This document shows, piece by piece, positions 36,564-52,366 of a stretch of DNA of 52,968 bases. The DNA lies in NCBI RefSeq assembly GCF_004959855.1, contig NZ_SPNT01000016.1:1-52968 (forward strand). The letters run 5' to 3'. Under the pieces are notes generated by a model. It saw only the letters and a list, made by a program, of their open reading frames with translations. It was not told the origin of the DNA and did not search any database. The position numbers were made by a program, and so were the translations under genes. The number at the start of each line of letters is the position of its first letter. Within the stretch, counting starts at the first letter, position 1. This stretch comes from Nitratireductor sp. XY-223 (GTDB lineage Bacteria > Pseudomonadota > Alphaproteobacteria > Rhizobiales > Rhizobiaceae).

Positions 36564-38030
36564 TCAGTATTTCGTATCGACCAGAAATCCTGTCCGTCCG
36601 CTGCACTGGAAACCGCTGGGTGCCTTGTGTTTGTTCAGACGACCATCCATTTTCTTACGGTTGAATTTCTTGCCGCACATCCCGCATTGATAGACGTAAG
36701 TCGGCCCGAAAGAAGAAATCGAGCGCCTTGCGGGGCGGCGCCGGAGCCTTTCGCGCCGCACAGGCGCGCGCATCGATCCAAACCCGCCACTTGGTGAACC
36801 TGAAGACGAGCGATCGGTCTGCGGAATCGACACTGGCCCACTCGGCGTCAATTCGATGGCATAGCGAGGGGTAAAGCTACGGTTCGTTGTCCGCGCGCCC
36901 TGTATCCGGTCGACACGGTAGCTGCGGTGTTGGTCCCGGTCGACATTCCAGGCATGCAGGATGATTTTTTCATCCTGGGTACGCCGAAGTGAATAGGGCT
37001 CGATAAGGCGTGTGCTGCGGCGTCCACTTTCGTCGGTGTAATCGAGTTCGACACAGAGCCGGTTCGCAGCTGCAAAACGGATGACTTCCAGGTCAGACTG
37101 GGCGCGCCCGCTGACCGGCAAGCGCAATGTACGCTCCCGGAGAACGGTTTCACCGGCAGCCATTGTGTAGGCCGCCGGGATTGCCGGTGCTGCTGCGCCG
37201 CCAAGCCACGCGAAAAATTCCGGCAGCGCATTCCAGAACGAGTCTACCGGCGGCAACTCCGGAAGCTGGTGCGCCAGCATGTTGGCCCAGGATCCTTCAA
37301 GATCGCCTCTGTGCCCGTCGAGATCACCGTCTTGCGGTAGGGAGATGCCCTTGAATTCGCATTTCTGGGCCAGGACATCGAGCAGAACGGCAGGAGCAGG
37401 ACGGGCTTCTTCATTGCGGAAAAGGTTGATTACATCATAGAGGTCACGCGGCCGTGCCCGCTCGGCGAGCGCCCGCACCTTTTCGCCGAAGGCTTCTTCG
37501 TAGGCGTATGAAAGCACTTCGATGCCGCCATCGGGCGCATCGCTGTATGGATGAAAGATCGGTATCCTGACGGGCGCGAGCACAAGGCGCTCATCGGCGG
37601 TAAGATCGAGCTTGATGCGGGGTAGTCCGCCGGAGCTTGGAGAAACCGGGCCGCGATAACTGAGCTTGCCTTGGCAACTCGGGTTGCCGCGCGGGTTTTC
37701 AAAAATGTCGAAGTCCTGCAGGTCGGCGGGGAATTCGAGTCCGCTCTGTTCGTATGTCCAGTCCGCGATTTCCGCAAAGACACGCTTCAAGAATGCCTCA
37801 TCGAAGTGCGAGCCGCCCTTAAGTGTGAAGTCCAGATCTTCGGAGAACCGGTACGTTTCGAAGTAGCACTTCTTCAGGCATGTACCACCTTTAAAGACCC
37901 AGCTATCGCTAAGCTCTTTATGAGCAAAGATACCGGCAAGCGCCCAGCCGAGCGCATAGTCCTTTTCAACAACATGTGGCGTAAGCCGTAGCACCCTGGC
38001 GATGCCGAGTAATTCGGACTTACCGATCAT
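36564..38030 (-). CDS. AbiEii-type nucleotidyltransferase toxin fused to WYL and zinc-finger domains
   Basis: A 488-residue toxin candidate. Residues 1-270 are an AbiEii/AbiGii-type nucleotidyltransferase: KGGT (47-50), RFSEDLDF (61-68) with the metal-binding Asp65/Asp67, a later KLDL strand, and KVRALAERARPRDLYDV. Residues about 310-395 form a WYL-like domain (ELDYTDESGRRSTRLIEPYSL, YRVDRIQGA), where KIILHAWN replaces the usual WYL strand. The C-terminal 50 residues hold a C-X2-C-X15-H-X7-C zinc-finger-like motif. AbiEii toxins are GTP-dependent nucleotidyltransferases neutralised by the AbiEi partner; the extensions suggest nucleic-acid sensing. It overlaps the antitoxin gene by 11 bp, with AAAGG before the ATG. 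Confidence 0.85.
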   Translation of the reverse strand: MIGKSELLGIARVLRLTPHVVEKDYALGWALAGIFAHKELSDSWVFKGGTCLKKCYFETYRFSEDLDFTLKGGSHFDEAFLKRVFAEIADWTYEQSGLEFPADLQDFDIFENPRGNPSCQGKLSYRGPVSPSSGGLPRIKLDLTADERLVLAPVRIPIFHPYSDAPDGGIEVLSYAYEEAFGEKVRALAERARPRDLYDVINLFRNEEARPAPAVLLDVLAQKCEFKGISLPQDGDLDGHRGDLEGSWANMLAHQLPELPPVDSFWNALPEFFAWLGGAAAPAIPAAYTMAAGETVLRERTLRLPVSGRAQSDLEVIRFAAANRLCVELDYTDESGRRSTRLIEPYSLRRTQDEKIILHAWNVDRDQHRSYRVDRIQGARTTNRSFTPRYAIELTPSGPVSIPQTDRSSSGSPSGGFGSMRAPVRRERLRRRPARRSISSFGPTYVYQCGMCGKKFNRKKMDGRLNKHKAPSGFQCSGRTGFLVDTKY

Positions 38031-38829
38031 GGGTACCGCCTTTCAGCCAGCTTGACGGCACGCGCAACCGCCAGCGCGTGACCAGTCGGTCGCACGCCAG
38101 CGTGGGATCGAGCTTGGCATGGCCCTTGGTCAAGCGGGTCTTGGCCTGCTTGACCAATACCTGCCCGTCCGGATGTCGCTCGGCCAGAAAGCCGAGTCGC
38201 TTGAATATCGCGCCGTTGCCGTGACGGTCTGCGTATTCGATCAGTTTTTCCGGATCACGGTCGTTGCGTTTCATGTACTGCGAAAAACAATCTTCGACGT
38301 GCTGAATGCCGCCGCCGACGGCGGGACCGTCGAGCATGTCCACGATCGTGCGGTGAATGTCAGAAACGGCAATGCGGGTCTGGCCGCGCCAGACGGTCTT
38401 TGTGCCGAAGATCAGCTCTTCACGGACATATTTAAGCGTAAATGCAGCGCTTTGCCGCTCCACCGTTTTTTGCCTTACAGGGCGCGCGGTGAAGACAACG
38501 ATGTCACGGAATATCTGCTCGGTCAGGTCCCAATGTTCGGCAGCGGTGCGGCCACCGATATAGGCGGGTGCAAACAGGGCCGGAACAAGTATCCACGGGT
38601 CCTGCAGAACCTGCTCCGAATCCAGCAGTTCAAGCTGTACCGGCACATAGATTCCGGTGCCAACGCGGCGCAGCCAGCCCTGCTCGGTCCAGCGCGCGAG
38701 CAGCTTTGCCGCCCTTTTTCTCGAAACACCAAGTGCCTGCGCCGCATTTTCGATGCGCACGACATCGCCTGCCGCCTGTATCACAGCGGCAAGCCGGGCT
38801 CTTCCTCGTGGCAGGTTCGAATCGCTCAT
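38020..38829 (-). CDS. AbiEi-type antitoxin/regulator
   Basis: A 269-residue antitoxin partner. The N-terminal winged helix (residues 5-60; ALGVSRKRAAKLLARWTEQGWLRRVGTGIY) should bind its own promoter. The remainder resembles the AbiEi antitoxin domain (WILVPALFAPAYIGGRTAAEHWDLT, SDIHRTIVDMLDGPAVGGGI). The frame opens at 38874, but the ATG at 38829 begins the conserved part; no strong ribosome site precedes it. It is first in a two-gene operon with the toxin, the usual antitoxin-toxin order of abiE loci. Confidence 0.85.
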   Translation of the reverse strand: MSDSNLPRGRARLAAVIQAAGDVVRIENAAQALGVSRKRAAKLLARWTEQGWLRRVGTGIYVPVQLELLDSEQVLQDPWILVPALFAPAYIGGRTAAEHWDLTEQIFRDIVVFTARPVRQKTVERQSAAFTLKYVREELIFGTKTVWRGQTRIAVSDIHRTIVDMLDGPAVGGGIQHVEDCFSQYMKRNDRDPEKLIEYADRHGNGAIFKRLGFLAERHPDGQVLVKQAKTRLTKGHAKLDPTLACDRLVTRWRLRVPSSWLKGGTHDR

Positions 38830-38876
38830 GGTATATAATTCTGTTATAAATTTCTTTTTTTCGGGAAATTCCAAGA

Positions 38877-39353: not shown

Positions 39354-40331
39354 ATGACGGCCTCGAAGCATCTCATAGCACTCCTCAAGAGCCACATCGC
39401 ACGTGACGACGATCGGTTTCTATCGATCGCCATGCAAGTGGCTGCACATGAGGCACGGAAAGGCCATGGTCAGGTTGCGCAGCAGGTGCGCGAACTGGTG
39501 GACCAGGCACGCAGCGGAAAGGTGGAACGCTCAAGGCAGCCTGTTCCGATCGCACAGCCCAAAGGTGAACTGGCTTCTTTGGTCGCGGTTAGCTTTTCAG
39601 AGACCCGTCTGAAAAGCATGGCACTGACCGATGAACTGGAGCAGCAGCTCAAGCGCGTCATCGTCGAACAACGTCAACAACACAAGATTCTTGAGCGCGG
39701 ATTACAACCGCGACGGAAGCTGCTCCTTGTCGGACCGCCTGGCTCCGGCAAAACGATGACTGCATCTGCGTTAGCAGGAGAACTTCACCTTCCGCTTTTC
39801 ACGGTGGTCTTCGATACTCTGATTACTCGGTTCATGGGCGAGACGGCGTCAAAGCTTCGCGTCATTTTTGAGGCGATGACTGAAACGCGCGGCGTGTACT
39901 TCTTTGATGAATTCGATGCAATTGGTGCCAGACGCTCTGAACGAAATGATGTGGGTGAAATACGACGCGTCTTGAATTCTTATCTCCAGTTCCTTGAGAA
40001 AGATGAGAGTGATAGCCTGATTATCGCGGCGACCAATCATGTCGAGTTGCTCGATCCCGCTCTTTTCCGCCGTTTCGATGACGTCATTCAGTACAATCTT
40101 CCGGACAAAGAGGTCACGCTGAAGATTTTGCAGACACGTCTGGTGGGATTCGAGACAGGTGAGATTGATTGGCAGGTATCCGCCGAGATGACAGCGGGTC
40201 TCAGCCAGGCCGAGATTTCGCGTGCTGCTGATGAAGCAGCAAAGAGAGCGATCCTCACTGATCGCACAAACATCACCAATGACGACCTGTCGGTTTCCAT
40301 ACAGGAGCGGCGTTCGGCAACACACAAGTAG
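39354..40331 (+). CDS. ietA: AAA+ ATPase, IetA-like
   Basis: A 325-residue FtsH/katanin-group AAA+ ATPase. Walker A is GPPGSGKT (127-134), Walker B VYFFDEFD (181-188), sensor 1 ATN (226-228), and the arginine-finger pair RR (239-240). A short N-terminal helical region precedes the ATPase core. The next gene, 9 bp downstream, encodes a subtilisin-like protease; this AAA/subtilase pairing matches IetA-IetS, first reported as a plasmid stability/incompatibility toxin-antitoxin pair in Agrobacterium and later as anti-phage. The symbol is assigned from this architecture, not from an alignment. Confidence 0.8.
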   Translation: MTASKHLIALLKSHIARDDDRFLSIAMQVAAHEARKGHGQVAQQVRELVDQARSGKVERSRQPVPIAQPKGELASLVAVSFSETRLKSMALTDELEQQLKRVIVEQRQQHKILERGLQPRRKLLLVGPPGSGKTMTASALAGELHLPLFTVVFDTLITRFMGETASKLRVIFEAMTETRGVYFFDEFDAIGARRSERNDVGEIRRVLNSYLQFLEKDESDSLIIAATNHVELLDPALFRRFDDVIQYNLPDKEVTLKILQTRLVGFETGEIDWQVSAEMTAGLSQAEISRAADEAAKRAILTDRTNITNDDLSVSIQERRSATHK

Positions 40332-40340
40332 AGGCCGACA

Positions 40341-42827
40341 ATGCCGAACGGGGAACAGCGCAATCTAAGGCATATCTATTTTTCGGGTCATGGAAACCGT
40401 GAACCGTTCACGTGGCCAACTGGCGGCGGCGGGAAAGTAACGATTCCGGAACGAAACCGAGCGCAACATGCTGCGCGTTTGGAACAGGCCCTTGTCGAAG
40501 CAATTGCTGCAGCCGATGAGCAATTCGCTGCCCGAAACACTGAAATTGCAGGAGGTGCACCCGGCTTCTATCTGGAGTTTGATATCGGCTGGGAACAGAG
40601 CGCGATACTGGACAGGCTCGAAGACAAGCGCGGCCAATATCATATCGAACTTGTGGCCGTGAGGGCCGCTGACGCCGATCCCGAGAACAAGCTGTCTGCC
40701 ACAGTGTTTGTGCCCGAAGCCAAGCGCGAGCTTTACCTGAAAAAGGTCGAGGACTACCGCACTAAGGAAACTCGGACTGGAAAGCCCCAGAACCAGCCTT
40801 TGGTTGCGTCAATGGAAGAAGTCCGCCTCGCTCATGCGCGGTCGCTTTTCACCGATGTTCCCGAGTCCTTTCCCGTAGCGGGTCAGCAAACCTGGTGGGA
40901 AGTTTGGCTTCGTACCGATGCACGCCCCGTCCTCGAACATGCGGTAAATGGACTGGGCATGGTGTTGCGCGATCACTTTGTCCGCTTTCCTGAACGCGAG
41001 GTGATGCTAGCACTTGCGACGCCCGAGCAAATCGGGAGCGTTGTCGCGAACACCGACGCCATCGCCGAACTGCGGATCGCAAGAGACACGCCTGCCGTGT
41101 TCATGGAAATGGATGCGCACAAGCAGCGCGATTGGAACGATGAGATTGCGGAAAGGGTTCAGGCGCCTGAAGGCGATGCGCCGTCGGTCTGCATCCTTGA
41201 TTCCGGCTCGACAAGGCCGCATCCGCTTATTGAACCTGCCCTTGATGCGGCAGACCAGCAATCATGGAATGGGCTCTGGCTGGTCGACGACACCAGCCTG
41301 ACATGGCGCGGTCACGGAACAAAGATGAGTGGGTTGGCGCTTTATGGCGATCTCGTTGAACCGCTAACTGGCGACGATCCCGTCGTTTTGAGTCACATTC
41401 TTGAGTCGGTCAAGGTACTGCCCGATCAAGGTGCGAATGACCCTGACCTTTACGGATACATCACCGCGGAGGCGATGAGCCGAGCGGAAATTCAAGCGCC
41501 GGAGAGGCCTCGGGTGTTTTGTCTCGCAACCACCAGCGAAGGTGATCATTGGAAAGGACGCCCCTCGTCCTGGTCTGCTGCGTTAGATGAACTTGCATAT
41601 GGCGATGGTGAGTTGCAGCGTTTTGCAGCGGTATCGGCTGGCAATATCGGGGCATTGTATCCAGCAGGCGAATACCTCGACCAGAATGATGCATCGCCAA
41701 TCGAAAGCCCGGCGCAGGCATGGAATGTGCTGACCGTCAGTGCTGTCACCGAGAAGTGTGTAATCACAGACCCTACCTTTACGGGATGGAGTGCTCTTGC
41801 ACCCGCCGGCGATCTTTCACCGCTCAGCCGCACATCCATCACGTGGCAACACGAATGGCCGATAAAGCCAGACATCGTCTTTGAAGGCGGCAATTATGGT
41901 GTTAATCCAGCGAATGATGACAGCGATCATCTCGATGATCTCGCACTCCTGACGACGAATAACCATCTTCAAAACGGCTATTTCAGCGTCATTTCAGATA
42001 CGAGTGCCGCCACCGCACTAGCTTCGCGAATGGCGGCGCAGATTCTGGCTGATCGACAGGAACTGTGGCCGGAGACAGTCAGAGGTCTAGTCGTTCACTC
42101 GGCTGACTGGACACAAGCAATGCGCGGACATCTGCCGATTAATCCAACGCAAAACGACAAGCGACTCTTGTTGCGACGCTACGGCTACGGTGTCCCCAAC
42201 CTGGAAAGGGCGACACGCAGCCTGAGCAATGATGTCACGCTCGTGATCGAGAACAGTATGCAGCCCTTCTATCTGGATGGCTCGAAAATCAAGACCCAGG
42301 ACATGATCTTCCATGATCTGCCGTGGCCTGCCGAGAAGTTAGAAGCGCTCGGCGAAGAGCACGTCCAGCTGCGCGTAACGCTGAGCTACTTTATCGAGCC
42401 TAATCCCGGCGAGCGGGGGTGGACCAAGCGTCATAAATACGCCTCGCACGGTTTGCGCTTTGCAGTAAAACGGCCCGAGGAAGACGTGGCCACTTTCCGC
42501 GGTCGAATAAACGCCGCCGCGCGGGATGAAGAGGAAGGTGATTACACTGGCGGTCAGGAAGACGGTTGGGTTCTCGGGCCGCGTCTTCGCAATCGGGGCT
42601 CTTTGCATTCGGATATCTGGGATGGAACAGCCACCGATCTTGCGAACCGTCACAGCATCGCAGTCTACCCGACAGGTGGTTGGTGGCGTGAGAAGCGCAG
42701 CCTGGAGCGCTACGATCGGGAGGTTCGATACGCACTTCTCCTGACGCTTCGCGCACAAACCACTATTGATCTTTACACTGAGATCGAAAATGCGATCGCC
42801 GTTGAGGTCGAAATTGGCTCAGGGTGA
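40341..42827 (+). CDS. ietS: S8 subtilisin-like protease, IetS-like
   Basis: An 828-residue intracellular serine protease (no signal peptide). The catalytic triad is Asp287 (VCILDSG), His325 (WRGHGTKMSG) and Ser555 (SDTSAATA); the oxyanion Asn435 is in SAGNIG. About 270 residues precede the catalytic domain and 260 follow, which is long for a subtilase and typical for proteases regulated by a partner. All key residues are intact, so it should be active and needs control by the upstream ATPase. GAGG serves as a short ribosome site. Confidence 0.85.
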   Translation: MPNGEQRNLRHIYFSGHGNREPFTWPTGGGGKVTIPERNRAQHAARLEQALVEAIAAADEQFAARNTEIAGGAPGFYLEFDIGWEQSAILDRLEDKRGQYHIELVAVRAADADPENKLSATVFVPEAKRELYLKKVEDYRTKETRTGKPQNQPLVASMEEVRLAHARSLFTDVPESFPVAGQQTWWEVWLRTDARPVLEHAVNGLGMVLRDHFVRFPEREVMLALATPEQIGSVVANTDAIAELRIARDTPAVFMEMDAHKQRDWNDEIAERVQAPEGDAPSVCILDSGSTRPHPLIEPALDAADQQSWNGLWLVDDTSLTWRGHGTKMSGLALYGDLVEPLTGDDPVVLSHILESVKVLPDQGANDPDLYGYITAEAMSRAEIQAPERPRVFCLATTSEGDHWKGRPSSWSAALDELAYGDGELQRFAAVSAGNIGALYPAGEYLDQNDASPIESPAQAWNVLTVSAVTEKCVITDPTFTGWSALAPAGDLSPLSRTSITWQHEWPIKPDIVFEGGNYGVNPANDDSDHLDDLALLTTNNHLQNGYFSVISDTSAATALASRMAAQILADRQELWPETVRGLVVHSADWTQAMRGHLPINPTQNDKRLLLRRYGYGVPNLERATRSLSNDVTLVIENSMQPFYLDGSKIKTQDMIFHDLPWPAEKLEALGEEHVQLRVTLSYFIEPNPGERGWTKRHKYASHGLRFAVKRPEEDVATFRGRINAAARDEEEGDYTGGQEDGWVLGPRLRNRGSLHSDIWDGTATDLANRHSIAVYPTGGWWREKRSLERYDREVRYALLLTLRAQTTIDLYTEIENAIAVEVEIGSG

Positions 42828-42900
42828 TATCAGCTGCGATTCCCGGATTAAGTCCGCTTGGCTGGATTGCATCGCAACGACCAGAAGCGCTTACGAATGA

Positions 42901-42913
42901 CCGCAATGGGCCG
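42901..42913. repeat. Short dispersed intergenic word
   Basis: CCGCAATGGGCCG here recurs at 46272-46284, in each case followed by GAGC- or GAAGC-like sequence. Both copies lie in non-coding gaps of the island, in the 247-bp gap after ietS and in the gap before the pseudogene. They look like relics of a dispersed intergenic repeat. Confidence 0.45.
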
Positions 42914-43074
42914 GAAGCAGTCTCCATACTTTGAGACCTTCGCCCAAAACGCTGCATCGGGAAATAGGGCGTACAGTTGACCATCGTTGTAGGGTTTAGA
43001 GATGTCGGAAAAATCCCGAAAGCAGACTTGGGTTGAGATATCCGTTTGGGCTGAACGGTAAACGGTAAGATGCT

Positions 43075-46047
43075 CTAGTCTTCGAACTTCAGTATTTCGC
43101 GTACTTCCAAGCCACGACCCTTTGAGTCAGGAACAACCATTGCGGTGAATTTGTCTCCTACACTTATCAACCGATTAGTAGCGTTCTCTAAAACAGAAAT
43201 CCGAAAATAGGCGTCCGCTGCGTTCTCGCTGAGAGAAGCGAAGCCATAACCCCTATCTCTAAAGAACTTGACTATCTGACATTCTGCCTTGCGAGCATCT
43301 GGCGAGTGTTCTTCGATCTCGTGAATCTTGGAAACAAAGATACCTTTCGACCCAGTTGATAAATCACACAAGATTGTATCGCCCTCGGACAATGACACCA
43401 ACCCTGCCTGCCGCACCTGTTCCATGTGAATGAACACCGAATCCTCGAGTGTTTCTTCACTATCCACTTCGACGAACCCGTAGCCCTTTTCGAGATCGAA
43501 CCAGTCGACTGTTCCGACCACCCCCGCCCTGGAAAAACCAACCGCAGATTCAGGCACACCCGCTGAAGATTGTGATGAATGATCCATACCTCGAGCGCTG
43601 CTTTTCGAACCAAATCGCATCAGTTTTGAGATTAACTCAGATTGGTTTGCGTATTGCTCCGACTTCACGTCCTGATTCACATAATTTGCATCTTCCTCAA
43701 TCAAGTACTTACAAAACGCTGATCGCACTCGATCTGCTCGACTCTTATAAGGGCCAGTTCCCTTGATTGAGCTTGAGATCTGATTAGCAACGTCTGAGCT
43801 CGAAATTCGAGTTGTCAGTGCCAGCTGTTCGAAAAACACGTAATTCTCCGTCGCCAGCAATAGATGAATTCTGCCTGCGTTTGTGATTGCAAATTTTTGG
43901 TTTGTATCCACGCTCCGATTGGACATATCGTATGGCTCTATCAATCGAGCCTCCATCAGCGTTAAAAGCGCATTATCAACGGCAGCTTCATTGCATCCAA
44001 TACCATCAAAAAAGTCGACAATGGATTGAACAGTTAAGTGCTGCTTGTCAATTTCAGAGTGTGCCTTGTAAGCGGCCTCCAGCAAGGCAAGTATCCTCAG
44101 ATACAATAGTGGAGAACGGGGTAACTCGGGATCGCTCGAAAAGACAGGAAATATCTCGTGCTGGTCGCTTTGCCTAAAGTACTCGTAGTTTCCCTTCATT
44201 AAGGCTTGCAGAAACTTCTGGAAATTAGGTGCAACAGCCGTCCCCGTTATATAGCTTTTCAATAAGTCTTCGACTTTCAGGATCGATGATGTCATCACTC
44301 GCTGAGACAGTCTTAGCGTCCTGCGAATGTTATAGTTGGTCAGCTGTCCGAGGGTCTTAGCGGTGTATTCTTGCTCTACGAATACCTCCTCAATTGCCTT
44401 TGCAAATGCTCTGATATCTGGGATCGATACCTTGATGCCTTTTCCCGCAAAATAGCTTCTTGCTGATTCCTCGTCTTGCTCGGCGTTCACTCTTTTCTGG
44501 ATAAAATCGATGCGCTTGCGGAACACTTCTCTAGGCGAAGGCGTCGGCAGAAAAAACGATTTCGATTGGTAAATACCGTAGATGTCGGTTTTGGAAAACG
44601 ACCACGCCGACTTATCAGTGACTGGGAAGATCAGTAGACAGTGATTTGCATGTCTACGAAGCGCTTGTGCGAATTGAAAAGTGTTTTGTTTGATACGTTC
44701 TGAAAACTCATCGGTGTTGTCCACCACAATTATGGGTAGCTTTTTGCGATTTTTTACGACGTCGGCAAGAAGCTTCCGCAGGTAATCCTCTCGATTCTCC
44801 TGCACCTCTCTTTCGAGGATTATGCTAAACTTACTATAAAACGCATCTTTATCTCGCTCATAGAGTTTTGCGTCAACACCTCGCGATCGTTTCTGATACT
44901 CGTCGAAGTACAAACCACGCAACTCTTCCCACGATGGCGATCCACCATCGTAGCAACGGGATTCTAATCCTCTGATTAGCTGTTCGGTGATCCAACTATG
45001 TAACGTGTCTCCGTTTCCGGTGGCGTCCAAAAAATTGATTCTCAACATGACGCATTGTCGACGCACGGCTTCCGATAATGTCTTCCGAAAAAACCTGTTT
45101 AGAAAAGTCGTTTTTCCCGCCCCAGTAGGGCCGACGATGAATATGGTCTGTCCGCTTTCGGCTGCTGATTTATCCGTCTCACCTAAATTAGCTTGAATTA
45201 GCGTCGCGAGTTCGACATCGATATCCAGAAGTTTGGGGTCTAAATTCCCGAGGACACCGGCTGTGATTTTTTCCATCGAGAAATCAGCTATGCGACTTTC
45301 CCTAGTTTCGACGAAACACTCGACCAGCATTTCGTCGTCCTGATCGCCTGATAGTCGATCGAAAAAGGCCTTAAACACCGCGTCTAAGTCGAAGGCGAGT
45401 GGGCTCTTTGGTAATAGCTTTATATGGTCCTCTTCGATTGGCGCCACCAGTGGATTAGTCAACAGCAGTCTGGTGTTGTGAATCTTATCAAAGACTGCGT
45501 TGTATGTTTTTCGACCGAACTCTGATCGCGATAGAATTTCATAAAATTCTTCAAAACTATCGATCAAGGCATTTAGACTTGGAAAAACTACCGCTTGTTT
45601 TTCTTTGTACGGATCACCCGATGTGAATGTTTTGAAGACTATCCAGGCGTCTCCGTCCGTTACCACGGATATCGGAATTCCATTCGCAGCTGAGTATGAG
45701 AACGCCTGATCGATCCCTTGCATTGCTTCCTTTAATGCAGGGCCGGAGATTTTCCAGTATTTCCGCTTTGAAGTGTCGGACGTGTTCAATCCCACTCTTC
45801 CGATTCTCTTGGCCTCGATCAAAAGCGCGGGACGATCTTCGATCAACAAAATGTAATCGGAGTAACCGTTTTCGTGGTGCGTTTCCGCTCGAATGGACTC
45901 GAATTCCCAACCCAAACTGTCGGTCAGAATTCGATTAATGATCCGGATTTTGGCATCTTCCTCGCTGAGGATGGATTCTCCATGCTCTACAAAATCATCG
46001 TAGATTGTCTTCGCGGCAGAGAATGCGTCATCCAAGCTTCTGGTCAC
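43075..46047 (-). CDS. HsdR-like nuclease/P-loop NTPase with tandem cold-shock domains
   Basis: A 990-residue protein not recognised as a known defence family. Residues 25-140 resemble the type I restriction HsdR N-terminal nuclease: acidic Asp64 (GYSDYIL) and Glu78-x-Lys80 (LLIEAKRIG), the PD-(D/E)XK pattern. A P-loop NTPase follows, with Walker A GPTGAGKT (306-313) and Walker B PIIVVDNTDEF (438-448), STAND/KAP-like. The middle is helical. Two cold-shock domains close the chain (842-908 and 921-987), each with the RNP1-type GYGF and a paired RNP2-like motif (VFIH, AYFRI). The start is GTG, fixed by CAAGGAGG 5 nt upstream. The gene is distinctly AT-rich. Nucleic-acid sensing by the cold-shock pair with nuclease output is inferred. 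Confidence 0.85.
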   Translation of the reverse strand: MTRSLDDAFSAAKTIYDDFVEHGESILSEEDAKIRIINRILTDSLGWEFESIRAETHHENGYSDYILLIEDRPALLIEAKRIGRVGLNTSDTSKRKYWKISGPALKEAMQGIDQAFSYSAANGIPISVVTDGDAWIVFKTFTSGDPYKEKQAVVFPSLNALIDSFEEFYEILSRSEFGRKTYNAVFDKIHNTRLLLTNPLVAPIEEDHIKLLPKSPLAFDLDAVFKAFFDRLSGDQDDEMLVECFVETRESRIADFSMEKITAGVLGNLDPKLLDIDVELATLIQANLGETDKSAAESGQTIFIVGPTGAGKTTFLNRFFRKTLSEAVRRQCVMLRINFLDATGNGDTLHSWITEQLIRGLESRCYDGGSPSWEELRGLYFDEYQKRSRGVDAKLYERDKDAFYSKFSIILEREVQENREDYLRKLLADVVKNRKKLPIIVVDNTDEFSERIKQNTFQFAQALRRHANHCLLIFPVTDKSAWSFSKTDIYGIYQSKSFFLPTPSPREVFRKRIDFIQKRVNAEQDEESARSYFAGKGIKVSIPDIRAFAKAIEEVFVEQEYTAKTLGQLTNYNIRRTLRLSQRVMTSSILKVEDLLKSYITGTAVAPNFQKFLQALMKGNYEYFRQSDQHEIFPVFSSDPELPRSPLLYLRILALLEAAYKAHSEIDKQHLTVQSIVDFFDGIGCNEAAVDNALLTLMEARLIEPYDMSNRSVDTNQKFAITNAGRIHLLLATENYVFFEQLALTTRISSSDVANQISSSIKGTGPYKSRADRVRSAFCKYLIEEDANYVNQDVKSEQYANQSELISKLMRFGSKSSARGMDHSSQSSAGVPESAVGFSRAGVVGTVDWFDLEKGYGFVEVDSEETLEDSVFIHMEQVRQAGLVSLSEGDTILCDLSTGSKGIFVSKIHEIEEHSPDARKAECQIVKFFRDRGYGFASLSENAADAYFRISVLENATNRLISVGDKFTAMVVPDSKGRGLEVREILKFED

Positions 46048-46484
46048 TCGCGCCTCCTTGTTTAGTCGGCCCTCGGGGGTGAGACTAATCAGAAACGGCG
46101 ATCATTGGAAGAAACTCCGGTCCGTAACCAATGTCTGATTTTGTGCCGAATGTCGTCATTGCTAACCAGTGCGTTTAACGCCTGCTTAGGGCCGGCTCAG
46201 CAAGAAGCTGGCAGAATTCCAAGGTCTCAAACGGGCTCGATCCGGCCGTTCACCACGAAACGCACCAACGGCCGCAATGGGCCGAGAGCGGACGGGTCGC
46301 TTTCAGGTCAGAGTATCGTGAAAGCGGACATCTGCGCATTATCGGCGGGCACGGCCGGTTTCGGCCTGGCACCTACTGGCGCTCGAAGGTAGCAGCCTTA
46401 ATCTTCCGCAGATAGCCACGTTGCAGATTTGGCCAGTTCCGACAATATATTGGGCGACACTATATCTTGAAGGGGCGCGCGCAA
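46048..46484. other. Divergent intergenic region with repeat relics and a promoter-like pair
   Basis: About 440 bp between divergent genes. It contains the shared words CCGCAATGGGCCG (46272-46284) and AAAGCGGACATC (46321-46332). TTGCAG (46421-46426), 17 bp, AATATA (46444-46449) could drive the rightward nuclease-NTPase remnant. Short frames here have no family features. Confidence 0.4.
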
Positions 46485-49400
46485 TTGGCTAGCGAAACGG
46501 CACCGACATCTAGAATGAACGCGGGTGGGCGGGCAACCGAAGCCGGGATGGACTTCCAAGCCGAGGTCGGTACTTGGCTTGCTGCCCATCTGCTAGCGCG
46601 GATGCCGGTCGGTGGGCGTTTCGGCCTTGCCAACACCGCCTTGCCGGTCTCGATCCAGCTCGAAACCGGCGATGGGCTCGATGACATCCGCCTAGAACAG
46701 GACGACGCCAGCCGCATCGACCTGCAGAGCAAGACCAGCGCGGGTCTTGCGAGAAGTCCCAAGAGCCCGCTCGGCAAAACCATCAGCCAGCTCGCGCGGC
46801 TGATGATCGACGCGCGCGATGCCGGCGTCGCGATCGATCCGGCGAAGGCACGCGCCGTGCTGGCGGTCGCGGCAGATGCGCCGCGCACGCTCGACGCGCT
46901 GGAACGCGGTTGTCGCGCTTTCGACCTTGGCGGAAGCTGGGACACCACCAAGGCCGGGCGGTCGTCGGCGGAGCGCGACGCGCTCGATCTGTTCGAGATG
47001 CACGCCCGGATCGCATGGGCTTCGATGTCTGCGACGCCACCGACCGACGATGATCTCGTGATGATGGCGGGGCTGTTCCGCATAGCTCGCTTCTCGATGA
47101 ACGAGTGTGAGGAGAATTGGCGCGAGGCTTCGCGGCTGATCGGTGGGAGGCTCTACGGCTCGCAAGCGTCCGGCGACGCGCCGCTGCGCGATCTGAAGGG
47201 CATTATCCGTAGCATGATTGGCAACGGCGCGCCTGCGGATCGTGCCGGATTGCTGCGCGAGCTTCGCCGGCTCGGCCACAAGGATGTGGGCGCGGCTGAC
47301 TATACCGCTGATCTTGGCCGATTGTCGGCGACGACCGGCGCCGAGCTTGCGCGCCTCGCCGGGCACACCCGCCTGCCAATCGCGGGTGGCATCTCTATAG
47401 CCCGGGCCAGCGACGGTCCGCTTCGCGCAGCGGTCGCTTCCGGTTCGCTGATTGTCATTGGCGAACCTGGGGCCGGCAAGACCGGTGCGCTGGTGACGCT
47501 AGCCGAAACGCGACGCGCGGCCGGCGATACGGTTGTGTTCCTTTCGGTCGACCGCTTTCCCGGCGTCGGCATCGCGGCAAATCTTCAGTCCGAACTGGGG
47601 TTGGAGCACCCGCTGGTCGACGTACTGAGCGCGGCGCCGGGTTTGGGCGCAAAGCTATTAATCATCGAAGCGCTCGATGCCGCGCGAGGTGGTCCGGCCG
47701 AGGGCGTGTTCGCGCAGCTGATCGAGACGCTTGGCGCTTCGGCAACAGACTGGACCATCATCGCGTCGATCCGCAGTTTCGACCTGTGCAATGGACGCCG
47801 GTTTCGAGACGCGATGCCGGGATCGCCACCCGATCAGGCCTTTGCGGAACCGGGTCTGGCCAACGTACGGCATTTTCAGGTGCCGCGACTGGCAGAGGAG
47901 GATCTCGATGCCGCAGGCGCCGCTGCAGCCGATCTCGGCAGCTTGCTCGCCGCCGCGCCTGAGAAGCTACACGACCTGCTGCGCAATGTCTTCAACCTCT
48001 CGCTCGCTGCGCAACTGCTGTCCGATGGCGCCAAGCCCGACAGCATTCGTACGGTCGCCACTCAGTCCGATTTGATTGATGCCTATGAGGATGGCCGACT
48101 CATAGGCACATCATTGCATGAGGCCGCGGCAGCGACCGTCGGCGCGATGGTTTCTCGGCGCAGGCTCGCGGTGCGCAAGGTCGTTGTCGGGCACGGCCAG
48201 CTCGACACTGTGATCCAGACTGGCGTCCTCACTGACTCCGGCGATCTCGTGAGCTTTGCCCATCATGTGCTGTTCGATCACGTCGCCGGCCGCTTCTTTC
48301 TTGAATGGGATGATCCAACCCGGCTGATCGGACAGTTGGGCGGCGATAGCTCGATCGCGCTGATGCTGGCGCCAGCGCTGCGCTTCGCTATCGAGCGGCT
48401 GTGGCGCCACGATGCCGACGGTAAGGCGCAAGTCTGGTGCCTGGTCGCAGAAATCTATGCCGACGCGGCTGTCGATCCGGTGCTGGCCAATGTCGCTCTC
48501 CGCACCGCGATCGAGCGCGTGGCAACGCCGTCCGATGTCGCTGGTCTGGTCGCGTTGATTGCGGCCCGCCCGAATGACGAAGCGCTGGTGACGATGCTCT
48601 CGCGGCTGGCACGCTTTGTAGGGCTTGCGGTCGATACGGCCGGCACTATCGTAGCGAGCGAGGCGATTGCCTGGGCACAAGTAGCTGATGCCGCGATTGC
48701 AACGGGATCGCGCGGCCTCTCCGACGCGACGCGCGTCCTGCTCCACACGATGTTTGACAAGGGCGATCTCACCGAGGCCGAGCTGCTCGATGTCTTCGGC
48801 CGCGCGGCGCCGGCGCTGCTTGCCTTTGCCTGGGCTGCCGATCCGCCAATGCAGCAGACCGCCACCAACTCCATCCGTTTCGTCGGCAAGAGCTTCGCGT
48901 CCGATCCCGCCGCATCACGCACGCTGCTCGACCGCATGCTTCGCGACCCGCATTTTTCGGCGCATGTGCCGATCGGGAAGCCACCTGGCTTTCCGAGCAG
49001 ATCATGCCGATCGCGCGGGTCGACCCCGACTTCACGATCGAAATCTACCGCGTCCTATATTCGCGCGACATCACCGACAACAGTACCTCTCATTTCGGCG
49101 GGCAGGCGAGCCGGATCATGCCGCTCTCGTCAAGCCGCAGTCAGGATTACCGCCATTGCCGCTATAAACTCGGCCGGTGCGTGACGCAGCTGCTCGAACT
49201 GTCGGTGCCGCTCGGCACGCGCGCGATCGTCGAAGCGGCGCTTGGTGAGACCGATCGTGCGATGCCGCTCGGCGATGATCGCAAGCGGGTGGCGATTGGA
49301 GGGCGAGCGCCATTCGATCTGCTGGGTCGCGATTACACGTTCAAGGCGTGGGACGATAGCGAGGCGCACCACGGCACGCAGGATGACGATGTCCTCGCGC

Positions 49401-49915
49401 GGTTGGTTGCGCATCTGCGTGCCTGCTCGCCAGAGGGGTTCGCCGCGACGGTCGAGGCAGCCGCGAGCGACTATGCCGGGCCGGCCGTATGGGCGCGAAT
49501 TCTAGGCGTCGGCGCCGAGCGCGTCTGTGAGGTCAGCAACTTGCTCTGGCCGTTCGCCAGCAATGTCACGATCCTGGTGCATGCAGACATTGTTCGGGAC
49601 GCGGTGCGGTTCCTGGCTGCCGTTTATCCCTCTCGTTCGATAGAAGAGCGCGTGGCGTTCGAAGTCGAGGCGTTGCGGCCCGATCTGTTTACCAACGAGG
49701 CGGAGCAATGCTGGTGGCGGCGCACACTCAGCCGGATTCTGTCGCTGATCGATGCGGATGCCATCGAGAGTGACCCGATGCGCGCGCTTCGCGATGAGCT
49801 GGTCGCGGCGGACGAACTCTTGGGCAATCCGCCGACCCGTTCGATGACTGTGCGCCGGGGCTCGGCCCGCAGCTTCACTCGCGGCCTGCTCGCCAGCGAG
49901 GGTGTGGACGTCGAT
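46485..49915 (+). pseudogene. Frameshifted, 3'-truncated nuclease/NTPase (Avs-like) gene
   Basis: A long defence-type ATPase gene broken twice. The N-terminus has a restriction-nuclease-like pattern (LDDIRLEQDD...IDLQSKT), then a P-loop at 47455-47484 (VIGEPGAGKT) and a long helical part, recalling nuclease-STAND proteins such as Avs. The frame read from 46485 fails near 48970: the residues HVP switch into the -1-deleted frame DREATWLSEQIMPIARVDPDF, which stays protein-like to about 49900. There the sequence joins antisense to the next gene. The start is uncertain: TTG at 46485 has AAGGGG 9 nt upstream; an ATG at 46515 is possible. The frame then runs out at 48984-49184 in shadow sequence. 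Confidence 0.75.
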
Positions 49916-50569
49916 GATGGCATCGATAAGGATCGCCGCCTCGCGCAGCTCCGGGCTCAGCCCCGGCAGCCTCTTGCGTAGTGCTTCGGCCCGCTCCCGG
50001 CCGAAGAGGTCGTCCATATGCTGGGCTACGAACTGGTTGCCGATGCCCGCATTAATGCGATTGTAGTTGAAGAAGAAAACGCAGTCGCACCCCCAATCCT
50101 TGATCACGCCCTTGATGATGTTCAGAGAAAGCCCCTTGTATCCGAACGGGTCAATGAACGAGAAGGAAGGAATGAGTTTCGTCTCGTTGAAGTACCGGGC
50201 AGCTTCATCGTCGACCTCGCCGCAGGTTACGATCGGCCTGTAGGTGAACTTCTCGATACCCGGCAGCTTGTTTATCTCCTCTTGAAGGGTCGCCGTATTC
50301 TCGTTCCTGGCGTCGTTAAAGTAGGAGACGAGCATCCGCGCCATACGGACGTCGTCGAGCGCAGTCTGAAGGACGAGAAGAGGTGTCGAAGCGGCACCAT
50401 CCCTGTAGCGCCCAGGCCCCGCATAAAGGTCGATGTAAGCGATTTTGCCGCCATGTTTGGCGGCGGTCGGCATTATCACTCGCGCCCAAGCGAAGAAATA
50501 TTTCGTGACAATTCGCGCCTTTACCTCGGACTGGTCCGAGCGTTCCTCGAAGAAATTCTTTGCCTTCAT
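49502..50569 (-). CDS. tcmP: Three-Cys-motif partner protein (TcmP), 3' end replaced
   Basis: A gene for a TcmP-family protein of unknown function, related to a Rossmann-type fold. Family motifs are KIAYIDLYAGPGRYRDG, FIDPFGYKGLSLN and LRKRLPGLSPELREAAIL. Only residues 1-217 (50569 to about 49918) are TcmP-like; from there the frame reads the antisense strand of the broken NTPase gene to the stop at 49502, giving a chimeric tail of about 138 residues. TcmP genes normally neighbour a three-Cys-motif (Gp37/Gp68-like) gene, which is absent here. A GGGGAGG ribosome site lies 10 nt before the ATG. Confidence 0.72.
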   Translation of the reverse strand: MKAKNFFEERSDQSEVKARIVTKYFFAWARVIMPTAAKHGGKIAYIDLYAGPGRYRDGAASTPLLVLQTALDDVRMARMLVSYFNDARNENTATLQEEINKLPGIEKFTYRPIVTCGEVDDEAARYFNETKLIPSFSFIDPFGYKGLSLNIIKGVIKDWGCDCVFFFNYNRINAGIGNQFVAQHMDDLFGRERAEALRKRLPGLSPELREAAILIDAIIDVHTLAGEQAASEAAGRAPAHSHRTGRRIAQEFVRRDQLIAKRAHRVTLDGIRIDQRQNPAECAPPPALLRLVGKQIGPQRLDFERHALFYRTRGINGSQEPHRVPNNVCMHQDRDIAGERPEQVADLTDALGADA

Positions 50570-50724: not shown

Positions 50725-51645
50725 TCATCTCCACGGACCGCCCGCGTTCCATGTCCCATCGAAGGCCTTGCCAGCCACAAGAGCATGGGTGGGCAGCAGC
50801 ACGAACGCGGCCACATTGTCTTGCAATTCTGCAAACGGGCCGGGCGCCATGGCAATCGCAGTTCGGCGCAGGAACCCCCGCCATTGCGCCTGCTTCGCGG
50901 CATCTTCGGCGAAGGCTGGCGTCAGGGCGACAGGCGTGTCTGTGGGGATATCCGTATGGCGACGCTCGAAGGTTGCAGCGATAGCGTCGGCAAGGACACC
51001 GCCGTCGAATGAGAACGTCTGGGAGATAGCCCAGAGGTCGAAGAAGTCCTTCATCCGGCTGTTGAGCATGCCGAGCGCGACCAGCGCCTGGAACTTCTCA
51101 GCCACGACCGTCTCGGGTGGATAGGCCCGGAGCCGCGGCGCCGGCATGTTGAGCAGAGAAGGATAGTCGATCTCCAGCACGTCCGGCGTCACCGCGTCAC
51201 CAAAGCCAATGTCAACCTGGATCGGCAGGCGTGCGCCAGCAATCTCGGCGATCATCGTGAGCCGAACGCCGCTATATTCGTCCTCGGCCCGAGCCATCTC
51301 GGCCCGCAGCGTCTCCGGCTTGAAGACGACGCCGTCATCCGCGAAGTCGATGCTGCAGATCTCCTGGAAGGTTGTGGCGATACGCTCCGGCGCGGCGTCA
51401 CCATATCCCAGAAGGTCGAGGTCGCCGGTCGCCCGATAGGGCGTGGGTGCCCAAAGGCTGAACAGCATGGCACCTTTGAGGACGAATTGCCCGCTATAGG
51501 CCGAGACGCTCAGCCGGTAGAGAAGCCGCTCTATGGCATAGCGCGTGAGCGCAAGCTGGACGTTTTCCTTGCGTTCGCTCGCGCGCCGGGTGAGGCGTGC
51601 CCTGACCGAGGCACCGACATTCTTGAGGGGAGGTTTCGGGTTCAT
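50725..51645 (-). CDS. AbiEii/AbiGii-type nucleotidyltransferase toxin
   Basis: A 306-residue toxin candidate of the second AbiE pair. The nucleotidyltransferase core shows VLKGAMLF (Lys57-Gly58), the catalytic Asp75/Asp77 in TGDLDLLG, a later LPIQVDIGFGD strand, and AEKFQALVALG with RMKDFFDLWAI. Unlike the toxin at 36564-38030 it lacks WYL and zinc-finger extensions. The frame opens at 51708, but the ATG at 51645 overlaps the antitoxin stop by ATGA, the usual coupled arrangement, so it is chosen. Confidence 0.87.
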   Translation of the reverse strand: MNPKPPLKNVGASVRARLTRRASERKENVQLALTRYAIERLLYRLSVSAYSGQFVLKGAMLFSLWAPTPYRATGDLDLLGYGDAAPERIATTFQEICSIDFADDGVVFKPETLRAEMARAEDEYSGVRLTMIAEIAGARLPIQVDIGFGDAVTPDVLEIDYPSLLNMPAPRLRAYPPETVVAEKFQALVALGMLNSRMKDFFDLWAISQTFSFDGGVLADAIAATFERRHTDIPTDTPVALTPAFAEDAAKQAQWRGFLRRTAIAMAPGPFAELQDNVAAFVLLPTHALVAGKAFDGTWNAGGPWR

Positions 51646-52256
51646 GCCGTGGCCTCGATATAGGGCCGCATCACGTTCTGCACACGGTCGATGGCGGCGA
51701 AATGCCAAATGTCATCGACCGTGGCGCGGCGGCTTCGGAGACAGTCTCTGAGTGCCTCAATGGCGACATCGAGACCGACCTGGCTGCGGTATTTGAAGCA
51801 GTCGGCGACCGTCTTGGCGGGAATGGTGATAGGTACTTCCACCTGCTCGATTGTGTGCCGGTCCACCCCGACGGTCAGGGCATCGCCGGTGGCGCGGATG
51901 ATGCGCAGGGACACCGGCGGGTTTTTCGGCTCCCACTTCTTGTGACCGATCAGCATCCACACCTGATGTGGCAGTTGCGTCGTGAGTTCGTGGAATCTGA
52001 GCGCGGAGAGCAGGCAGATAACACCGTGGGGCACGGCCCGGGCGGCTTCGGCAAGGCTGTGGGACTCGGACCATTCCGCATCGGCAAGCTGATAGAGGCC
52101 GCGCCCCATGCGGACTAGGAGGCCTTCATCTTGAAGCCTCCGCAGGTAGGCGCGCGGAATGCCCGCCGCATCGAAGTCGCGCGCGCGCGCGATACCGCGC
52201 TCCCTGGCGACGGTAATCGCACGATCCTTCAGCGTTCCTTGAGCCGTTCCTGCCAT
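51642..52256 (-). CDS. AbiEi-type antitoxin/regulator
   Basis: A 204-residue antitoxin of the second pair. The N-terminal winged helix (residues 8-55; GIARARDFDAAGIPRAYLRRLQDEGLLVRMGRGLYQL) is followed by the AbiEi core (AVPHGVICLLSALRFHELTTQ, VPITIPAKTVADCFKYRSQVGLDVAIEAL). The ATG at 52256 follows an inverted repeat suited to autoregulation. Upstream in-frame codons back to 52334 cross that operator and are not needed. Confidence 0.87.
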   Translation of the reverse strand: MAGTAQGTLKDRAITVARERGIARARDFDAAGIPRAYLRRLQDEGLLVRMGRGLYQLADAEWSESHSLAEAARAVPHGVICLLSALRFHELTTQLPHQVWMLIGHKKWEPKNPPVSLRIIRATGDALTVGVDRHTIEQVEVPITIPAKTVADCFKYRSQVGLDVAIEALRDCLRSRRATVDDIWHFAAIDRVQNVMRPYIEATA

Positions 52257-52266
52257 GTTCCGTATG

Positions 52267-52292
52267 CTCGGCAATAACACATAAATGCCGAG
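52267..52292. promoter_or_regulatory. Inverted repeat upstream of the second AbiE operon
   Basis: CTCGGCA (52267-52273) and TGCCGAG (52286-52292) face each other around a 12-nt AT-rich centre, 11 bp before the antitoxin ATG. AbiEi proteins bind two inverted half-sites here in characterised loci, so this is the likely operator. A -10-like TGTTAT lies within the centre on the minus strand. Confidence 0.6.
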
Positions 52293-52366
52293 ACTTTGTA
52301 TCACGCCCTCCTGATCCCCTGCAACCGGAACCAAACAGCTCGACCACGAGTGCGACGCTCATGCTG

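What the first reader, a model, noticed from the sequence alone, without database searches (positions are those of the whole stretch)
43075..46047. Nuclease-NTPase protein ending in two tandem cold-shock domains
One chain joins an HsdR-like PD-(D/E)XK domain (Asp64, Glu78-x-Lys80), a P-loop NTPase and two cold-shock domains with intact RNP-like motifs. I do not know a named anti-phage system with this order. Cold-shock domains bind single-stranded RNA or DNA, so they could act as the trigger for a nuclease licensed by NTP hydrolysis. The gene lies between ietAS-like genes and an Avs-like remnant, has its own strong ribosome site, and is markedly AT-rich, a sign of recent transfer.
Basis: partly seen in the sequence, partly recalled or inferred. 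Interest (0 to 1): 0.85.

Follow-up and report, generated by a model that had tools for sequence, protein, structure and literature searches.

The report
Nuclease-ATPase with tandem cold-shock domains
A single bacterial protein joins a DNA-cutting domain, an ATP-driven switch domain and two RNA/DNA-binding cold-shock domains; it belongs to an uncharacterised family found on plasmids and in prophages and looks like a self-contained antiviral sensor-and-cutter, which nobody is known to have tested.

Summary

The CSDs are an add-on: 18 rows have two, 2 have one, 36 none, 1 is cut by its contig end. No partner gene recurs at a fixed place. The family is rare (3 of 385 class genomes) and occurs on plasmids and as prophage cargo. 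No PADLOC, Pfam or NCBIfam match spans the protein; PHROGs holds the core as unknown function.

Best explanation: a one-gene accessory defence protein, nuclease effector - NTPase switch - nucleic-acid sensor, ordered like Avs/NLR proteins with CSDs in the sensor position. Defence and CSD triggering are inferred; enrichment of defence genes beside homologs was not shown. CSDs are known in other, multi-gene defence systems (CoCoNuTs, TALON, KKP). I call it a new variant of a known kind.

The parts
43075..46047 (-). the gene: 990 aa, GTG start, TAG stop
   Evidence: purifying selection in relatives (dN/dS 0.017-0.088 in the 4 of 6 pairs tested that were not saturated)
46053..46059 (-). AAGGAGG, Shine-Dalgarno-like, 5 bases before the GTG
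   Evidence: read directly
45478..46047 (-). residues 1-190, HsdR-type PD-(D/E)XK nuclease domain
45856..45858 (-). Asp64, catalytic position
   Evidence: 57 of 57
45808..45816 (-). Glu78-Ala-Lys80, ExK
   Evidence: 57 of 57 at each position
45694..45708 (-). Gln114-x3-Tyr118 (QxxxY; motif name recalled)
   Evidence: 57 of 57
45283..45318 (-). residues 244-255, CFVExxESxxAD family signature between nuclease and NTPase
   Evidence: C244, F245, V246, S251 57 of 57; E247 55 of 57; E250, A254 53 of 57
44548..45162 (-). residues 296-500, P-loop NTPase core of ORC/Cdc6/STAND kind
45109..45132 (-). Walker A GPTGAGKT, residues 306-313
   Evidence: K312 57 of 57
44710..44727 (-). Walker B VVDNTD, residues 441-446
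   Evidence: D443, N444, D446 57 of 57
43843..44130 (-). residues 640-735, winged-helix-like region
   Evidence: predicted secondary structure; some Cdc6/Orc alignments run to 735-739 at rmsd 5.6-8.4; reading as winged helix is mine
43312..43524 (-). residues 842-912, cold-shock domain 1 (RNP1 KGYGFV, RNP2 VFIH)
43084..43296 (-). residues 918-988, cold-shock domain 2, RNP1 kept, RNP2 altered

Best explanation
A one-gene, horizontally moved defence protein. The N-terminal HsdR-like nuclease is the effector, held inactive in the resting protein. The central ORC/Cdc6/STAND-like NTPase with winged helix is the switch that assembles or changes shape when it binds or hydrolyses ATP. The C-terminal tandem CSDs, on a flexible tether, read exposed single-stranded RNA or DNA made during phage or plasmid invasion and shift the switch to its active state, so that the nuclease cuts DNA (the invader's alone, or the host's too, as in abortive infection). 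Shown here: the domains, invariance of catalytic residues, selection in relatives, modular presence of CSDs, absence of a recurring partner, plasmid and prophage copies. Inferred: defence, autoinhibition, oligomerisation, CSDs as trigger, DNA as substrate.
For: Nuclease fold and intact active site. NTPase matches ORC/Cdc6, TnsC and the RdrA ring; Foldseek also lists plant NLR resistosomes. Asn444 next to Walker B Asp443 and Asp446 are invariant, which I read as a switch rather than a processive motor. RNP1 kept in both CSDs; in the one CSD-bearing pair that can be measured (L038/L039) dN/dS is 0.246 for CSD1 and 0.149 for CSD2 against 0.065 for the NTPase: kept, but looser. Solitary gene: no neighbour family recurs at a fixed position. 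This copy lies near a serine recombinase, IetAS, two AbiEii-like proteins (one with AbiEi), PDC-M54A and a TcmP match. A two-CSD member sits between tail-completion and baseplate genes of a contig that I read as P2-like (L095); another beside a tail-fibre gene (L088). Patchy: core-length relatives in 3 of 151 relatives' genomes, own included, and in 3 of 385 class genomes, own included.
Confidence: 0.5

Rival explanations
1. Targeting, not triggering: the CSDs dock the protein on single-stranded nucleic acid (R-loops, replication forks, entering ssDNA) and so choose the place of cutting, while activation comes from another signal read by the 500-815 helical/winged-helix part shared by the family.
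For: The 501-740 part is common to CSD-bearing and CSD-less rows and about as conserved as the nuclease among the 18 two-CSD rows (mean identity 0.45 each); 36 of 57 rows have no CSD.
Against: Nothing here separates docking from triggering; the low-confidence tether (pLDDT under 50 at 816-837) fits both.
Confidence: 0.22
2. Defence mainly against plasmids or competing mobile elements, carried by the element for its own persistence, rather than against phage.
For: Seven plasmid records cover at least 80% of the query, one of them on a plasmid typed as conjugative; prophage copies.
Against: Prophage and chromosomal defence-island copies are at least as easily explained by phage defence.
Confidence: 0.13
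3. Cellular function: a DNA repair or cold/stress-responsive nuclease rather than immunity.
For: CSDs occur in stress proteins; some homologs lie in ordinary surroundings, e.g. beside guaA/guaB-like genes (L037, my reading of the ORFs); four cyanobacterial loci share chromosomal neighbours.
Against: Very patchy occurrence (3 of 385 class genomes; no core match in the 7 other members of the genus), plasmid and prophage carriage, broken copies (L024, L025, L085).
Confidence: 0.08
4. Degenerate or silent island gene in this copy, family functional elsewhere.
For: Neighbouring PDC-M54A is broken, CSD2 has lost the RNP2 His, no promoter-like site in 42700-46600.
Against: Uninterrupted 990-codon frame, catalytic residues intact, strong ribosome site.
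Confidence: 0.07

Closest known systems
HsdR / type IIG (BpuSI, DrdV) PD-(D/E)XK nuclease domains
   Same: fold and active site of residues 1-190
   Different: no helicase motor or methylase part; joined to an ORC/STAND-like NTPase
Avs / bacterial NLR-like STAND nucleases
   Same: order effector nuclease - NTPase switch - C-terminal sensor; Foldseek lists plant NLR resistosomes. The Avs architecture is recalled
   Different: no PADLOC Avs hit; CSDs in the sensor position; NTPase nearest to ORC/Cdc6
CoCoNuTs (type IV restriction, McrBC kin), PMC11090510, passages read
   Same: combine CSD-like OB-folds, an NTPase and a PD-(D/E)XK nuclease; predicted to target RNA
   Different: several genes; McrB-type GTPase, coiled coils, McrC with DUF2357; CSD at the N-terminus of CnuB or in CnuC; here one chain with C-terminal CSDs
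TALON and TOTE-family systems, PMC12458937, one passage read
   Same: TALON operons pair a TPR-CSD fusion protein with a PD-(D/E)XK (NERD) nuclease and a YprA-like helicase
   Different: separate genes, other nuclease subtype, no ORC/STAND-like NTPase fused to the CSD
KKP kinase-kinase-phosphatase module, PMC11341870, passage read
   Same: a prophage-encoded defence module in which PfkA carries a C-terminal CSD
   Different: kinases, no nuclease
Retron effectors with a cold-shock protein (PADLOC CSD_V, NCBIfam retron Se72)
   Same: a CSD in a defence setting (cold shock proteins among retron effectors, PMC10568477, passage)
   Different: no reverse transcriptase hit among scanned neighbours; match confined to the CSD and far below NCBIfam's cut-off
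RADAR RdrA
   Different: no deaminase partner seen; a nuclease is fused instead
phrog_14719 (unknown function)
   Same: matches residues 1-813 of the L095 member at E 3.3e-228: the core is already catalogued
   Different: its 833 positions do not cover the CSDs, and it has no function

Membership tests
HsdR-type PD-(D/E)XK nuclease domain | D ... ExK active site and QxxxY | tested here: met
   57 of 57 at each position
HsdR-type PD-(D/E)XK nuclease domain | restriction-endonuclease fold | tested here: met
HsdR-type PD-(D/E)XK nuclease domain | Pfam HSDR_N gathering score | tested here: not met
   23.2 against 25.1 bits; HSDR_N at E<=0.01 in 15 of 57 rows
Type I restriction-modification | HsdR helicase motor with HsdM and HsdS beside it | tested here: not met
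   no helicase domain above cut-off in P0001; no type I MTase in the printed hits of the 8 neighbouring proteins scanned
STAND NTPases | P-loop NTPase, STAND-type Walker B, winged helix, C-terminal sensor | tested here: inconclusive
   DNTD Walker B; weak nSTAND_NTPase5 hits in 19 of 57 rows; structure matches ORC/Cdc6 best; a paper treats STAND/ORC-Cdc6 as one family (PMC12839542, passage)
Avs | match to an Avs profile | tested here: not met
   none at E<=0.01 in PADLOC for P0001 (4 families) or over 57 rows (25 families, all printed)
Avs | activation by phage terminase or portal (recalled) | not testable with these tools
   needs experiment
CoCoNuT / McrBC | McrB GTPase plus McrC with DUF2357 | tested here: not met
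   neither among the 25 best of 35 Pfam families of P0001 at E<=1; the unprinted ten are no stronger than E 0.087
Retron with CSD effector | reverse transcriptase and ncRNA beside the gene | tested here: not met
   no RT in the printed hits of 8 neighbours; no Rfam match at gathering score in the window
Cold-shock domain | RNP1/RNP2 on a five-stranded OB fold, CSD1 | tested here: met
Cold-shock domain | same for CSD2 | tested here: met
   profile matches, Pfam in 15 of 18 segments; this copy alone has no Pfam hit and lacks the RNP2 His

The most novel reading that the evidence does not exclude
A class of single-chain immune proteins in which tandem cold-shock domains are the pathogen sensor: they detect exposed single-stranded RNA or DNA of the invader and, through an ORC/STAND-like NTPase, release an HsdR-like nuclease. 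CSDs were added (perhaps twice, as a pair in Pseudomonadota and as a single domain in Planctomycetota) to an older CSD-less nuclease-NTPase core.
Probability: 0.35. Interest if true: 0.75.

Novelty: new variant of a known kind. Interest (0 to 1): 0.57.

Why it matters
If the CSDs are the trigger, this would be a nucleic-acid sensor fused to its own nuclease in one gene, a compact counterpart of multi-gene CSD-bearing systems such as CoCoNuTs and TALON. CSD-bearing and CSD-less relatives with the same core exist in nature, so what the CSDs do can be tested directly by deletion and comparison. It would also suggest a function for a catalogued family of unknown function (phrog_14719).

Tried and rejected
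Partner gene: clustering of 1145 neighbour ORFs from 69 loci found no family with a fixed place beside the gene; by my reading of the sequences the largest clusters are ABC transporters, LysR regulators, oxidoreductases and integrases at scattered distances (only clusters in three or more loci printed). Conserved DNA or RNA beside the gene: 600-base flanks match only between close relatives, and Rfam finds nothing in the window at gathering score. Defence enrichment: PADLOC at E<=1e-8 on the 213 nearest ORFs of 61 loci (two per side, 100 aa or more, under 3600 bases) gave scattered hits such as type I R and M, ThsB, SoFic, DruM2-like MTase and PDC families; 146 of 163 distant ORFs also gave AbiE, IetA and type II R/M hits. 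Only 25 families are printed of 127 and of 61 and members are not named, so no per-locus count was possible; I do not claim enrichment. My ORF caller has no coding model, so some ORFs are spurious. Integrase enrichment: suggestive only. The HamA hit at 670-770 (E 0.0045) and the lipocalin hits I judge to be chance. Sequence profiles against PDB were weak: nuclease part 3h1t E 0.069, whole profile P-loop matches, ORC4 at 0.0025. The first genome scan with P0001 alone found nothing; alignment A1 then worked. Origin of the CSDs from the host's own tandem-CSD protein was not tested. In this version I corrected the statement that CoCoNuTs is the only CSD-bearing nuclease system in print: TALON and KKP also carry CSDs.
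Full report
What is there. The ORF is on the minus strand, 46047 down to 43075: 990 codons, GTG start, TAG stop. AAGGAGG stands five bases before the GTG. It is convergent with ietS (ends 42827) and divergent from the PDC-M54A frame (starts 46467), so it is probably transcribed alone (inference). No sigma-70-like promoter was found in 42700-46600, where shuffles give 4.0 on average. GC is 46.4% against 61.3% for the window and 63.2% for bases 1-36500; GC3 is 0.50 against 0.82 and 0.81 in two left-hand genes.

Domains by profile. Pfam gives AAA_22 at 299-465 (1.8e-8), CSD at 844-902 (2.6e-12) and HSDR_N at 57-142 (7e-5, just below its cut-off). NCBIfam gives only CSD and P-loop matches, all below cut-off. 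Over 57 rows, AAA_16 and AAA_22 are found in 56, CSD in 20, HSDR_N in 15 and HSDR_N_2 in 4. No PADLOC match spans the protein; the best for P0001 is a P-loop match to mad8 (2.2e-5).

The second cold-shock domain. Pfam does not see it in this copy. Three tests say it is one in the family: Pfam CSD in 15 of 18 C-terminal segments, profile-profile probability 98.8% against the CSD1 alignment, and a profile search whose best Csp structures come at 5e-14 to 1.6e-13. In this copy RNP1 is RGYGFA, but Arg949 replaces the RNP2 His found in 13 of 18 two-CSD rows. CSD2 of the window may bind more weakly (inference).

Relatives. Plasmid records: 40 with a match, 7 covering at least 80% of the query, in Pseudoalteromonas, Phaeobacter, two Acinetobacter, Rhizobium, Rhodobacteraceae and Robbsia. 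Of these, L024 is interrupted by an ISAba1 element, L025 is split over two frames, and the Robbsia copy has no CSD. Genome contigs: 60 loci from 343 candidate stretches, one of them (L087) matching only by a CSD. Phage records: none. Whole genomes: core-length matches in 3 of 151 relatives including the window's own, and none in the 7 other members of the genus, whose best matches are cold-shock domains; 3 of 385 genomes of the class including its own, one of them partial near a contig end. In one search, 148 of 151 genomes pass E<=0.001; apart from those three, the places printed lie in or run up to the cold-shock part.

Alignment A2 has 57 rows: the window, 53 of the 60 genome loci and 3 viral loci. 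I left out partial or broken loci (L075, L079, L083, L084, L085), L081 (start unclear) and L087; the plasmid loci were left out because the structure tool does not accept them. E29, E55, D64, E78, A79, K80, Q114, Y118, G132, W135, C244, F245, V246, S251, G306, G311, K312, D443, N444, D446, D478, W482, P503 and R512 are invariant. The stretch CFVE[ST]xESRxAD between nuclease and NTPase is a family signature that I cannot assign to a known motif. The invariant Asn444 beside Asp443 and the invariant Asp446 resemble a STAND-type rather than a classical AAA+ Walker B (motif knowledge recalled); I infer a switch.

CSDs are modular. Eighteen rows have two CSDs, two Planctomycetota rows (L071, L077) have one, and 37 were labelled as having none, of which L030 is merely cut off by its contig end inside CSD1, leaving 36. 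On a quick tree built without the CSD columns, 17 of the 18 two-CSD rows and L030 form one branch (support 98); L043 lies apart with weak support; the two one-CSD rows are sisters (99). So the pair arose or was kept in one lineage of Pseudomonadota and the single CSD looks separate, though deep branches are unsure. Gain versus loss is not decided.

Selection. Six pairs were tried. dN/dS over the compared length is 0.088 (L038/L039), 0.044 (L061/L066), 0.037 (L067/L078) and 0.017 (L080/L090); L031/L044 and L037/L088 were saturated. In L038/L039, the only measurable CSD-bearing pair, it is 0.065 for the NTPase, 0.246 for CSD1, 0.149 for CSD2 and 0.312 for the tether. Mean identity among the 18 two-CSD rows is 0.51 for the NTPase, 0.45 for the nuclease and 0.33 and 0.30 for the CSDs. 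The CSDs are kept but change faster, as expected of a sensor and equally of a peripheral domain.

Surroundings. The genes I scanned in the left part of the window are mostly metabolic. From about 34 kb there is a serine recombinase (34165-35949), an AbiEii-like protein with a WYL match (36564-38030), IetA and IetS (39354-42827), this gene, a PDC-M54A gene broken into two frames (46467-49184 and 49004-49981), a TcmP match (49502-50569) and an AbiEi/AbiEii pair (50725-52334). Elsewhere: an integrase-like gene lies within 3 kb in 7 of 69 loci (L029, L041, L044, L060, L068, L076, L090), against 5 hits at 3-6 kb and 4 (one weak) at 6-10 kb, over 358, 317 and 384 kb of flank. L095 has, in order, holin, endolysin, Rz-like spanin, tail terminator, tail completion, then the two-CSD gene, then baseplate assembly, wedge and baseplate proteins, which I read as a P2-like prophage. 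L088 has it beside a tail-fibre gene. P2-like phages carry anti-phage genes at a hotspot next to cos (PMC9122126, passages); the L095 site is a different one. PADLOC scans of near and far neighbours did not show a clear difference.

How it most likely works. The order effector - NTPase - variable C-terminus on a tether is that of NLR-like immune proteins. I propose that the CSDs bind single-stranded nucleic acid exposed in infection and tip the NTPase to assemble and free the nuclease. Each functional step is inferred. The main rival is that the CSDs only dock the enzyme on its substrate and another part senses.

What is known. Full-text searches for CSD with nuclease, NTPase/ATPase and defence terms listed no paper that I recognised as describing this domain order; I saw listings, and opened passages of a few. 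CSDs in defence systems are not new: CoCoNuTs combine CSD-like folds, an NTPase and PD-(D/E)XK nucleases over several genes (PMC11090510, passages); TALON operons pair a TPR-CSD protein with a PD-(D/E)XK nuclease (PMC12458937, one passage); the KKP kinase PfkA carries a C-terminal CSD (PMC11341870, passage); cold-shock proteins are among retron effectors (PMC10568477, passage); a 2020 survey mentions CSDs in NTP-dependent conflict systems (PMC7159879, passage). [quoted passage not shown] its supplements could not be read, so a CSD-less cousin among them is not excluded. Hachiman (PMC12278908, abstract and outline) is an example of a nuclease held by a DNA-state sensor. Passages of PMC11890865, PMC12169576 and PMC12657230 bore on other matters. 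The library holds open-licence papers only. The core is catalogued as phrog_14719, function unknown.

Verdict. Anatomy confirmed with small corrections; family real, rare, mobile and under selection; function unproven. A new variant of a known kind (single-chain nuclease-NTPase-sensor immunity) with CSDs as the unusual part.

Noticed in passing
46467-49981 (+): PDC-M54A candidate-defence gene lies in two overlapping frames (46467-49184 and 49004-49981) and reaches only profile position 1123 of 1621: a broken copy.
   Followed up: partly
36564-38030 (-) and 50725-52334 (-): Two AbiEii-like proteins lie on either side of the gene; the second has an AbiEi partner, the first also has a WYL match at 310-394. 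The ORF 38020-38874 next to the first may be its AbiEi partner; it was not scanned.
   Followed up: partly
49502-50569 (-): TcmP (three-Cys-motif partner) match that covers profile 2-210 of 263 in the first 213 residues; the rest of the 355-aa frame is unmatched, so the gene may be truncated.
   Followed up: no
34165-35949 (-): Large serine recombinase at the left edge of the defence genes, a possible integration module for the island.
   Followed up: no
45283-45318 (-), residues 244-255: CFVE[ST]xESRxAD motif between nuclease and NTPase, invariant at four positions in 57 rows, of unknown role.
   Followed up: partly
L095:2703-5630: A two-CSD relative sits between tail-completion and baseplate genes of a P2-like viral contig, a cargo site other than the cos-proximal hotspot of PMC9122126.
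   Followed up: partly
L024, L025, L085: Broken copies of the family (IS insertion, split frames), as expected of a gene that is easily lost.
   Followed up: no
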